This document shows positions 9,179 to 10,842 of a DNA stretch of 64,000 nt, piece after piece; the stretch's first letter is position 1, and every line of letters begins with the position of its first letter. The notes under the pieces were generated by a model that made no database searches, was not told where the DNA came from, and was given only the letters and a program-made list of their open reading frames with translations. Made by a program: the position numbers and the translations under genes. The DNA comes from Alphaproteobacteria bacterium (GTDB taxonomy: Bacteria > Pseudomonadota > Alphaproteobacteria > Rs-D84): contig JAFYXG010000011.1 of the NCBI GenBank assembly GCA_017546265.1, positions 64,221 to 128,220 on the forward strand. The letters run 5' to 3'.

Positions 9179-9206
9179 TCCGCCCACATTGGGCGGATTT
9201 TTTTTT
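9179..9206. terminator. Bidirectional intrinsic terminator
   Basis: TCCGCCCA/TGGGCGGA eight-pair stem with a three-base loop and a nine-T run, between convergent yidC and the Stealth gene. Confidence 0.85.
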
Positions 9207-10194
9207 ACTTTTCGAATTGTGATTTATCTGGAAACTTTTTATTTAAAAATTCCCAGTTTTTTTGTCTGACCTTATCGGATGTATTTGCACTGTCGTTTAT
9301 GCAGAACAGTGGTGGGTTTACGTGCTGCATTGCCCGTTCCGCATTTTCGCAATACAGTGGTGCGTTTTTGCATTCGTGATGATGTGTAATATTATACAGA
9401 AAATGTCGTGCACGTTTAAAATGTCTGGCTCGTTTCAGTATTGCACGTCCGTGCACAAAGTCGTACAGATTAAAAATCCATCGTTGCAGTTCCCAGTTTG
9501 TTCTGAATTTATTTCTGATTTGCATATCAAAGTGTTGCACCAGCAAAGGATGATTTCTGCATTGTATCATTGAAGATTTGATATATGGGTCGATATTATG
9601 TGCAGGTGCCATTTGCAGTAATTTTTTTCCAAATATTTTATGCAATTTGTGTGCCGCCATCAGAATAGTTTTTCTGTAATCAGATTCAACCATTTCCATT
9701 GCGTATCCGACATTGCTGATTTTTTTATTTTGTGTATACCATACAATTGCTCGTCCTCGTTTGTCATAAAAGAAATCTGGTGTCAGTGGTTTGTTAAAGA
9801 ACATATCATCATTTGCCAACAGGAAATATTCACTCAGGTTTGGGATATTCATGATACACATTTCAATTGCAACTGAATTAAAGGTTGGCAGACTGTCTGC
9901 CGGCATAATTTGTTCATGTGAAACAATTGTGATTTTTCGATGGTTTGTGTTCAGCCATTTTGGTATCTGGCCAAATCCTGTTACGATAAAGATATGGTTT
10001 ATCCAAGGTGCGTATTTTTCTGCACTTCGCAGGGCGAATTTTAATTCATCATTATCCCTCCATCGGGCATCCACGGTTGAATCATGACAGACGGCGACCT
10101 GGTTTTTTATTTTTTGCAACCAGAAATTTTTTTCTGTTTGCCAATTTTTATCGCTGTCGTCAACCCACATGTACACTAAATCTATTTTTTTCAT
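9205..10194 (-). CDS. Stealth-family sugar-phosphate transferase
   Basis: Stealth proteins are hexose-1-phosphate transferases that assemble phosphodiester-linked capsule or surface polysaccharides. Conserved region 1 is seen at the N-terminus (KIDLVYMWVDDSDKNW). Region 2 follows with DNDELKFALRSAEKYAPWI, IFIVTGFGQIPKWL, LPTFNSVAIE and FLLANDDMFF. Weaker regions 3 and 4 include the segment around HNIDPY. The start at 10194 is chosen because AAGGGA lies eight bases upstream; an in-frame start at 10221 falls in the terminator hairpin. No other glycosyltransferase is adjacent. The gene is preceded by a structured RNA element and an intrinsic terminator, suggesting attenuation. The exact sugar is unknown. 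Confidence 0.9.
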   Translation of the reverse strand: MKKIDLVYMWVDDSDKNWQTEKNFWLQKIKNQVAVCHDSTVDARWRDNDELKFALRSAEKYAPWINHIFIVTGFGQIPKWLNTNHRKITIVSHEQIMPADSLPTFNSVAIEMCIMNIPNLSEYFLLANDDMFFNKPLTPDFFYDKRGRAIVWYTQNKKISNVGYAMEMVESDYRKTILMAAHKLHKIFGKKLLQMAPAHNIDPYIKSSMIQCRNHPLLVQHFDMQIRNKFRTNWELQRWIFNLYDFVHGRAILKRARHFKRARHFLYNITHHHECKNAPLYCENAERAMQHVNPPLFCINDSANTSDKVRQKNWEFLNKKFPDKSQFEK

Positions 10195-10219: not shown

Positions 10220-10242
10220 AAAAAACCGTCAATAAATGACGG
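10220..10242 (-). terminator. Intrinsic terminator upstream of the Stealth gene
   Basis: Read on the minus strand: CCGTCA, loop TTTAT, TGACGG, then six T. It lies between the structured element and the Stealth start codon, so it either ends a separate small RNA or acts as an attenuator. Confidence 0.7.
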
Positions 10243-10250
10243 CCGGGCAT

Positions 10251-10381
10251 TTTCAAGGTCATAAATCCAAATGACTCTGTGGGTTTCGGGAATCCCTGTT
10301 GTATAACCACAGATACCCGACCATAGTGGTCAGGTTAAATATCGACACGCATTGCGTGCCGTGGATTTATGGGTCTTGAAA
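10251..10381 (-). ncRNA. Multibranched structured RNA element (unassigned)
   Basis: The ends pair over 17 bases: TTTCAAG (10251-10257) with CTTGAAA (10375-10381) and CATAAATCCA (10260-10269) with TGGATTTATG (10362-10371). Inside are three further hairpins: CTGTGG/CCACAG (10277-10282 with 10307-10312), GACCA/TGGTC (10319-10331) and CACGC/GCGTG (10346-10358), giving a four-way junction. A separate hairpin at 10378-10403 (five C pairing with five G) would compete with the outer stem. The minus orientation is preferred because an intrinsic terminator follows on that strand. I do not recognise a known riboswitch, SRP, 6S or tmRNA core. It could be a leader of the Stealth gene or an independent RNA. 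Confidence 0.5.
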
Positions 10382-10434
10382 TCCCCCACCCCGGGGGTAT
10401 TTCACACAAACTAAAATAACAACAGGATAAAAAG

Positions 10435-10794
10435 ATGATAATTATTGGATTTTCAAACAAGACAAGTAAGATTATCCCAAGGCTGGTATGCAGAAAATTT
10501 AAGCATGTGGCACCAATTGTGCCAGATAAAAATAAACTGGTGATGTACCAATTTGTTCACCGCAAAAAAATTGAAAAAATCACACTGAAATATCGCGATT
10601 TAGAAATACTGAAAAAATATGGTTGGAAATTTATCTGTATAGACCCTGATGTAAAAAATAACTTTGAAGATATGCGTGCATTCTCGTGTGTGCAATTCAC
10701 AAAAAAAGCAATTGGAATAATAAATCCAACCATTCAGACCCCATGGGGGCTGTATAAAAAAATAAACCAATTTAATATGTTGAATTTTTTTTAA
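10435..10794 (+). CDS. Uncharacterised 119-residue protein, possibly permuted NlpC/P60-like
   Basis: I do not recognise a named family. AGGA lies seven bases before the ATG, and the protein is basic and compact. One His lies in FKHVAPIV (about residue 24) and one Cys in FSCVQFTKKAIGI (about residue 84), followed by TPWGLYK. A His followed later by a Cys at the head of a helix is the order seen in circularly permuted papain-like (YiiX/LRAT-type NlpC/P60) domains, so a thiol hydrolase or acyltransferase fold is conceivable; this is only an inference. There is no signal peptide. It is isolated, transcribed away from the structured RNA element. Confidence 0.6.
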   Translation: MIIIGFSNKTSKIIPRLVCRKFKHVAPIVPDKNKLVMYQFVHRKKIEKITLKYRDLEILKKYGWKFICIDPDVKNNFEDMRAFSCVQFTKKAIGIINPTIQTPWGLYKKINQFNMLNFF

Positions 10795-10842
10795 TACTGG
10801 GGCATAATGCCATCGACCTGATAATCAAAGGTCTGGGTTTTT

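What the first reader, a model, noticed from the sequence alone, without database searches (positions are those of the whole stretch)
10220..10403. Four-way-junction RNA with competing hairpin and terminator ahead of the Stealth gene
A 17-pair closing helix (with one small asymmetric loop) encloses three separate hairpins within 131 bases. On the minus strand it is followed by a clean intrinsic terminator, then a ribosome binding site and the Stealth gene. A GC-rich hairpin at 10378-10403 shares bases with the closing helix, so two folds exclude each other. This is riboswitch- or attenuator-like, and I cannot match it to a known class.
Basis: partly seen in the sequence, partly recalled or inferred. 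Interest (0 to 1): 0.72.

Follow-up and report, generated by a model that had tools for sequence, protein, structure and literature searches.

The report
Multi-copy C4-type self-antisense attenuator leader
The RNA ahead of this surface-sugar gene is one of a large, previously unrecognised family of two-way RNA switches, up to about 50 per one-megabase gut bacterium and mostly ahead of exported-protein genes, each carrying its own private antisense 'address', and it appears to be built like a phage antisense RNA (C4) that has been fused to a transcription terminator.

Summary
The 17-pair closing helix is two antisense segments, a1·a' (7 bp) and b1·b' (10 bp). It encloses hairpins P2, P3 and P4, and a terminator follows, 20-odd bases before the Stealth gene. 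There is no gathering-level Rfam hit, but 12 of 20 sampled copies match RF02221 (sRNA-Xcc1) below threshold.

A covariance model finds the element in 185 of 201 genomes of the order, at 18-51 copies per genome in four genomes searched fully. Covariation supports two mutually exclusive folds. In one, a1·a', b1·b', P3 and the terminator form (OFF). In the other, helix P6 encloses P4 and P7 and destroys the terminator (ON).

RF02221 loci elsewhere in Pseudomonadota show the same a1-b1-core layout. Their a/b sequence is repeated at the ribosome site of phage antirepressor-type genes, which is the layout of phage P1 C4 antisense RNA.

In the window's group the ribosome-site target is largely replaced by a terminator. 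81% of downstream genes look exported, against 23-27% of controls. Near-identical leaders differ mainly in their a/b arms.

New variant of a known kind; trigger unknown.

The parts
10375..10381 (-). a1: 5' antisense segment UUUCAAG, pairs with a' (10251-10257)
   Evidence: a1.a' helix found in nearly all copies, locus-specific
10362..10371 (-). b1: 5' antisense segment CAUAAAUCCA, pairs with b' (10260-10269)
10343..10361 (-). P2 hairpin (variable region)
10315..10335 (-). P3 hairpin (ACCUGACCA/UGGUCGGGU); its 3' arm is also the 5' strand of P6
   Evidence: helix 1, 5 of 7 pairs with compensatory change
10276..10313 (-). P4 hairpin with conserved internal loop UAUACAACA / AAA and inner stem P5 (10288-10296)
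   Evidence: helices 2 and 3, all 10 pairs with compensatory change
10258..10275 (-). P7 hairpin (GUCAU/AUGAC) whose loop is b'; alternative to b1.b'
   Evidence: same position as the second hairpin of RF02221
10260..10269 (-). b' antisense loop UGGAUUUAUG
10251..10257 (-). a' antisense strand CUUGAAA
10241..10322 (-). P6, the RF02221-like closing helix: 10313-10322 pairs with 10241-10250; encloses P4 and P7; acts as antiterminator because its 3' strand overlaps the terminator's 5' arm
   Evidence: 7 of 10 pairs with compensatory change, including pairs outside P3
10219..10244 (-). intrinsic terminator GGCCGUCA-UUUAU-UGACGGUU plus U run
   Evidence: helix 4, 7 of 8 pairs with compensatory change
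10233..10322 (-). core matching Rfam RF02221 sRNA-Xcc1 over its full length at 30.6 bits (below the 53-bit cut-off)
9205..10194 (-). downstream gene: Stealth-family protein (329 aa)
10378..10403 (.).
10797..10837 (+). displaced promoter (CATAAT at 10803-10808) and 5' hairpin that in relatives L016 and L295 lie directly in front of this leader

Best explanation
It is the 5' leader of the Stealth gene and a member of a large family of self-antisense attenuators built on the plan of phage C4 antisense RNA. SHOWN by sequence and covariation: the leader carries an upstream target (a1, b1) and a downstream core (RF02221-like: closing helix P6, hairpin P4 with an invariant internal loop, hairpin P7). 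The P7 loop (b') and 3' flank (a') are complementary to that same target. When a1.a' and b1.b' pair, P3 and the terminator can form. When P6 forms around P4 and P7, its 3' strand takes the terminator's 5' arm. COMPUTED: the full leader strongly prefers the paired, terminated fold (OFF); with a1/b1 masked, the fold just before the terminator is completed tips towards P6 (ON); the core alone folds almost entirely as P6/P4/P7. INFERRED: transcription ends by default at the terminator, giving a short RNA. Something that occupies a1/b1 or stabilises P6/P4/P7 lets polymerase read into the gene. The likeliest candidate is the matching core RNA acting in trans, as C4 does, because paralogous leaders diverge mainly in their a/b arms, which matters only if molecules could otherwise cross-react. 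A protein bound to the invariant P4 loop is the alternative trigger.
For: Covariation: 22 of 25 OFF pairs and 7 of 10 P6 pairs change on both sides, 0 of 500 shuffles. Joint a1.a' + b1.b' helix in 112 of 121 copies from five genomes, 105 distinct b1 among 109 leaders; z 16 and 23 against permuted partners. Two-state energetics in 109 of 109 leaders; P6 3' strand overlaps the terminator arm in 94%; masking and core-only results. Conservation: 175/183 genomes of the family, 185/201 of the order. RF02221 relation in 12 of 20 copies, up to 48.3 bits. In RF02221 loci the a/b sequence recurs at the RBS (z 7.4) of Bro-N, KilA-N, P22_AR_N, Rha and SymE genes. C4 plan from PMC5320573. Close paralogs differ 30-38% in a/b arms against 1-8% elsewhere. 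Self duplex -16.9 against non-self -4.8 kcal/mol.
Against: No expression data. Rfam's C4 models (RF01695, RF02944) gave no match to any of these leaders, so descent from C4 proper is not shown. The RBS target of C4 is weak here (z 2.1). Even with a1/b1 masked, the finished terminator still beats P6 by about 4 kcal/mol on average, so switching would have to be kinetic or assisted. In this assembly the Stealth copy is separated from its promoter, so this particular copy may be silent. Fast a/b divergence could partly be compensatory drift in an otherwise tightly constrained RNA.
Confidence: 0.7

Rival explanations
1. A metabolite- or ion-sensing riboswitch. P4's invariant internal loop is the aptamer, the P3/P6/terminator set is the expression platform, and a1.a' plus b1.b' is merely a long closing helix that drifts by compensatory change.
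For: Bistable platform with terminator; P4 loop UAUACAACA...AAA is nearly invariant; default OFF fold.
Against: Downstream genes share export, not a pathway; the closing helix diverges several-fold faster than P2 or linkers in close paralogs; RF02221 relatives repeat the a/b sequence at the RBS, which is an antisense layout; subtype B lacks much of the P4 loop.
Confidence: 0.15
2. Mainly a trans-acting small RNA gene that happens to lie upstream of genes: the core is released and regulates unlinked mRNAs, as proposed for sRNA-Xcc1.
For: Sub-threshold RF02221 match; sRNA-Xcc1 is an 88-nt RNA with RACE-mapped ends in Xanthomonas (PMC2996969); each leader ends in its own terminator.
Against: Across copies the loops match their own upstream a1/b1. 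In the window's genome no other site matches a1-b1 closely (best 2 mismatches). RBS and ATG lie within 75 nt of the terminator in 102 of 121 copies.
Confidence: 0.1
3. A DNA-level element: a mobile promoter-leader cassette or single-stranded recombination site (integron attC-like), the RNA fold being incidental.
For: Near-identical promoter-leader blocks precede different genes (L020/L023/L024/L031; L002/L014/L015); sRNA-Xcc1 is known in integron cassettes (PMC12444791).
Against: Terminator with U run, RBS spacing and covariation of two alternative RNA folds point to RNA; no attC core sites recognised by eye.
Confidence: 0.05

Closest known systems
sRNA-Xcc1 (Rfam RF02221)
   Same: Core secondary structure: closing helix, hairpin with AUACAA...GAA internal loop and inner stem, second hairpin; full-length matches up to 48.3 bits; a1/b1 upstream in both
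   Different: Below the 53-bit gathering score; extra P3 hairpin complementary to the closing helix; intrinsic terminator directly after the core; RBS target largely absent; many copies per genome ahead of exported-protein genes
C4 antisense RNA of phages P1/P7 (Rfam RF01695; c4-2 RF02944)
   Same: Leader-encoded antisense with a'/b' segments complementary to a1/b1, pairing specificity carried by short variable segments, GG(U) at the 5' end of the closing helix
   Different: No covariance-model match; downstream genes are not antirepressors; terminator instead of RBS blocking; not in an evident prophage
C4-like Group 1 sRNAs of Acinetobacter baumannii (PMC5320573)
   Same: Large multi-copy chromosomal family of C4-type RNAs with variation concentrated in the antisense region
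   Different: Those are described as free sRNAs processed from longer transcripts; here each copy is a leader with its own terminator and coding gene
Classical transcription attenuators and antisense-driven attenuators (pT181 type)
   Same: Mutually exclusive antiterminator and terminator helices, antisense pairing to the leader
   Different: Antisense strand lies in the same transcript and strand; about 50 orthogonal copies in one genome

Membership tests
RF02221 sRNA-Xcc1 | Score at or above the gathering cut-off (53 bits) | tested here: not met
   Window 30.6 bits; best copy 48.3 bits
RF02221 sRNA-Xcc1 | Three-way core: closing helix + internally looped hairpin + second hairpin | tested here: met
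   Full-length alignment 1-87; P6 and P4 covariation
RF02221 sRNA-Xcc1 | About 88-nt RNA starting at the closing helix | not testable with these tools
   Needs RACE or RNA-seq; known for Xanthomonas only (PMC2996969)
C4 antisense RNA (RF01695) | Match to the C4 covariance model | tested here: not met
   No RF01695 or RF02944 match to the window at E<=10 or to sampled copies at E<=1
C4 antisense RNA (RF01695) | a' and b' segments complementary to a1/b1 in the same leader | tested here: met
C4 antisense RNA (RF01695) | Second target a2/b2 at the RBS of the downstream gene | tested here: inconclusive
   z 2.1 in the window's group (a subset shows it), z 7.4 in RF02221 loci
C4 antisense RNA (RF01695) | Downstream gene is an antirepressor | tested here: not met
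   Stealth gene; true of several RF02221 loci
C4 antisense RNA (RF01695) | RNase P cut at the 5' end of the closing helix | not testable with these tools
   GGU present at the P6 5' end (window 10322); cleavage needs an experiment
Terminator-based attenuator | Mutually exclusive antiterminator and terminator, both conserved | tested here: met
Metabolite riboswitch | Downstream genes linked to one metabolite | tested here: not met
   Exported proteins, glycosyltransferases, PLD nuclease, methyltransferases
Metabolite riboswitch | Ligand binding | not testable with these tools
   Needs in-line probing or similar

The most novel reading that the evidence does not exclude
Reduced-genome gut alphaproteobacteria domesticated a phage antisense-immunity module into an addressable control network: dozens of exported-protein genes each carry the same switch but a private antisense address under diversifying selection. 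Matching core RNAs act in trans so that each gene can be set on or off individually, comparable to antigenic variation but run by RNA addresses. The known sRNA-Xcc1 family would then be the phage-side form of the same device rather than a free virulence sRNA.
Probability: 0.3. Interest if true: 0.92.

Novelty: new variant of a known kind. Interest (0 to 1): 0.77.

Why it matters
If right, (1) up to about 50 structured leaders per one-megabase genome give a single handle on how a large uncultured group of gut bacteria controls its exported proteins. (2) It recasts Rfam's sRNA-Xcc1, so far discussed as a trans-acting virulence or integron sRNA, as a C4-type antisense leader of phage regulator genes. 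(3) It supplies a natural library of over 100 orthogonal antisense address pairs on one scaffold, with a direct transcription read-out, which makes trans against cis action and selection for RNA orthogonality testable.

Tried and rejected
A housekeeping RNA in Rfam: no gathering-level hit other than tRNAs in the window. Group-specific chance matches: 25 non-alphaproteobacterial contigs that carry the short core pattern do not score as the element (best 20.5 bits, partial), so the short motif alone is not enough. The GC-rich hairpin as part of the switch: rejected after comparison with L016 and L295. Trans targets of this copy's a'/b' in its own genome: nothing closer than 2 mismatches apart from itself; nothing notable in the window. 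Avoidance of cross-pairing within a genome beyond chance: not seen, within-genome and between-genome non-self duplexes are equally weak (-4.8 against -4.9 kcal/mol), so addresses are unrelated rather than actively repelled. RBS pairing as the general mechanism in the window's group: weak (z 2.1). Retron, bridge RNA, attC and self-splicing ideas were considered because of the repeated a/b segments and dropped for lack of partner genes or core motifs (judged by eye only). The original sRNA-Xcc1 paper (PMC3256417) is not held.

Full report
CHECK. On the minus strand the described fold is present. One search's minimum-energy structure contains two helices, 10375-10381 with 10251-10257 and 10362-10371 with 10260-10269 (17 pairs, one 3/2 internal loop, 131 bases). 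They enclose P2, P3 and P4 and are followed by the terminator at 10224-10244. The region folds 4.7 sd better than shuffles, none of 200 as good. Rfam at its own thresholds lists only two tRNAs in the window. A permissive search gives sRNA-Xcc1 RF02221, full length, 30.6 bits, E 0.0038 for the 901 bases searched.

FAMILY. The window's own genome (0.96 Mb, 80% complete) holds three further clear copies by DNA similarity, each in the order hairpins, core, terminator, RBS and gene. A covariance model from these four finds eight strong copies and weaker ones in the own genome. It matches 175 of 183 genomes of the family and 185 of 201 of the order. In full single-genome searches it found 34, 35, 51 and 18 copies. 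Scattered families elsewhere in the class also carry it (22 of 385 sampled genomes, four of them from the window's genus). Named records are gut Alphaproteobacteria including Candidatus Enterousia, and Rickettsiales-labelled MAGs. Candidatus Enterousia belongs to GTDB order Rs-D84, with reduced genomes and a suspected partner-dependent life (PMC12306168). I infer that the window comes from this group. Non-alphaproteobacterial contigs with the bare core pattern do not score.

TWO FOLDS, BOTH REAL. On 93 distinct matches the OFF helices (P3, P4, P5, terminator) pair in 96% of cells. 22 of 25 pairs show changes on both sides, 0 of 500 shuffles as good; sliding partners destroys the signal. The alternative helix P6 pairs in 94% of cells with 7 of 10 pairs compensated; its last three pairs lie outside P3, so it is supported independently. 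The alignment was fitted to the P3/P4/terminator structure, so leans towards it; P6 was not part of that fit. The closing helix is the most striking part. A joint two-segment helix a1.a' + b1.b' is found in 112 of 121 copies from five genomes, with 105 distinct b1 sequences among 109 leaders. Against partners permuted among copies the pairing is 16 and 23 standard errors above expectation.

ENERGETICS. In all 109 leaders tested, forcing the terminator is better than forcing P6, by 12.6 kcal/mol on average, and the a+b fold is essentially the minimum-energy fold. The P6 3' strand and the terminator's 5' arm share at least 3 nt in 94%. With a1/b1 masked the difference shrinks to about 4 kcal/mol. 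For RNA that has not yet made the terminator's 3' arm, P6 is then within 0.5 kcal/mol of the best fold in 61%, and is the best fold for the window. The isolated core folds as P6/P4/P7 with mean probability 0.96. These are nearest-neighbour computations without pseudoknots or kinetics.

RELATION TO KNOWN RNAs. RF02221 matches 12 of 20 sampled copies (up to 48.3 bits, cut-off 53). Across Pseudomonadota RF02221 passes its cut-off in 39 of 398 sampled genomes and in none of 14 controls. Reading 30 of those loci shows the same upstream a1-b1 segments, complementary to the core's second loop and 3' flank, and the same sequence again at the RBS of the next gene. For example, L221 has CCTAAGAAACGCCTTAAACCAGAGCGG upstream and CCCTAAGAAGCGACCAGAGGTAATGG at the RBS. 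Statistically the upstream pairing has z 8.6 and the RBS pairing z 7.4. Of ten downstream genes tested, seven had a Pfam match: Bro-N twice, KilA-N, P22 antirepressor N-domain, Rha twice and SymE. This is the published plan of the C4 antisense RNA: processed from a longer transcript by RNase P at the 5' end of its first stem, with a' and b' loops that bind the target and partly cover the ribosome site (summarised in PMC5320573). Rfam's C4 models did not match, so I claim 'works like C4', not 'is RF01695'. The papers I read do not connect sRNA-Xcc1 with C4; one lists both side by side as separate families (PMC12189769).

WHAT DIFFERS HERE. In the window's group an intrinsic terminator follows the core immediately, a P3 hairpin sequesters the P6 5' strand, and RBS complementarity is weak (z 2.1). 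The arrangement is thus an attenuator rather than a ribosome-site blocker. A second subtype keeps all helices but has a short P4 loop. Downstream genes look exported in 83 of 102 cases, against 14 of 51 window ORFs and 53 of 227 flanking ORFs (Fisher p 1e-10 and 2e-23; a simple hydrophobicity rule, not a trained predictor). The window's gene is a Stealth protein, so cell-surface in theme though not itself exported-looking.

ADDRESSES. Leaders at least 92% identical elsewhere differ by 30% and 38% in the a and b arms, while P2, core, 5' hairpin and P6 3' strand differ by 1-8%. In 13 of 14 independent close pairs the arms are the faster part (table). Pairs were chosen for similarity outside the arms, which lowers the comparison value by construction, but P2, which contains loops, is still four to five times slower. 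Own-partner duplexes average -16.9 kcal/mol against -4.8 for non-partners. I read this as selection for new pairing specificity. That is an inference, and it would make sense only if the RNAs can meet in trans.

THIS COPY. In L016 and L295 the order is gene X, terminator, 119-aa ORF, promoter with 5' hairpin, leader, Stealth, all on one strand. In the window the block of about 10387-10842 is inverted, with breakpoints AAAAAAA|TCCCCC and GGTCTGGG|TTTTCAAG. Whether this is phase variation, a fixed inversion or an assembly effect cannot be told here.

VERDICT. Real, conserved and functional by covariation: a new terminator-coupled, multi-copy variant of the C4/sRNA-Xcc1 kind. The switch anatomy is well supported. 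Default termination is computed. The trigger and its sign are open.

Noticed in passing
window 10387-10842: Block with the 119-aa ORF and the leader's promoter is inverted relative to L016 and L295, cutting the Stealth leader from its promoter; short inverted repeat AAAACCC/GGGTTTT at the breakpoints. Possible phase variation or assembly effect.
   Followed up: partly
L206-L235 (RF02221 loci): sRNA-Xcc1 outside the window's group is followed by a gene whose RBS repeats the upstream a1-b1 sequence; Bro-N, KilA-N, P22_AR_N, Rha and SymE genes follow. sRNA-Xcc1 looks like a C4-type antisense leader.
   Followed up: partly
L165-L169, L194-L204: Second subtype of the leader with a short P4 loop (UAUAUUGAA(U)A) and CCUCCUGACC-type P3/P6, also ahead of mostly exported small proteins.
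   Followed up: partly
L020, L023, L024, L031; L002, L014, L015, L111: Near-identical leader blocks precede unrelated genes, with similarity ending near the -35 region and in the terminator: leaders seem to be copied or moved between genes as units.
   Followed up: no
L265-L293 (G025): Large paralogous family of exported proteins with a conserved start (ASIVSRGFFDE...YATTTALDLKANQSDL), many of them with their own leader; no Pfam match for two members tested.
   Followed up: no
own genome G000 C9:2174-3094 and C1:6154-6661: Leader copies in close pairs: two in tandem with an exported PLD-nuclease gene between them, and two divergent about 265 bp apart.
   Followed up: no
L220 24-1193: CRISPR-DR4 repeat array about 300 bp upstream of an RF02221 match.
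   Followed up: no
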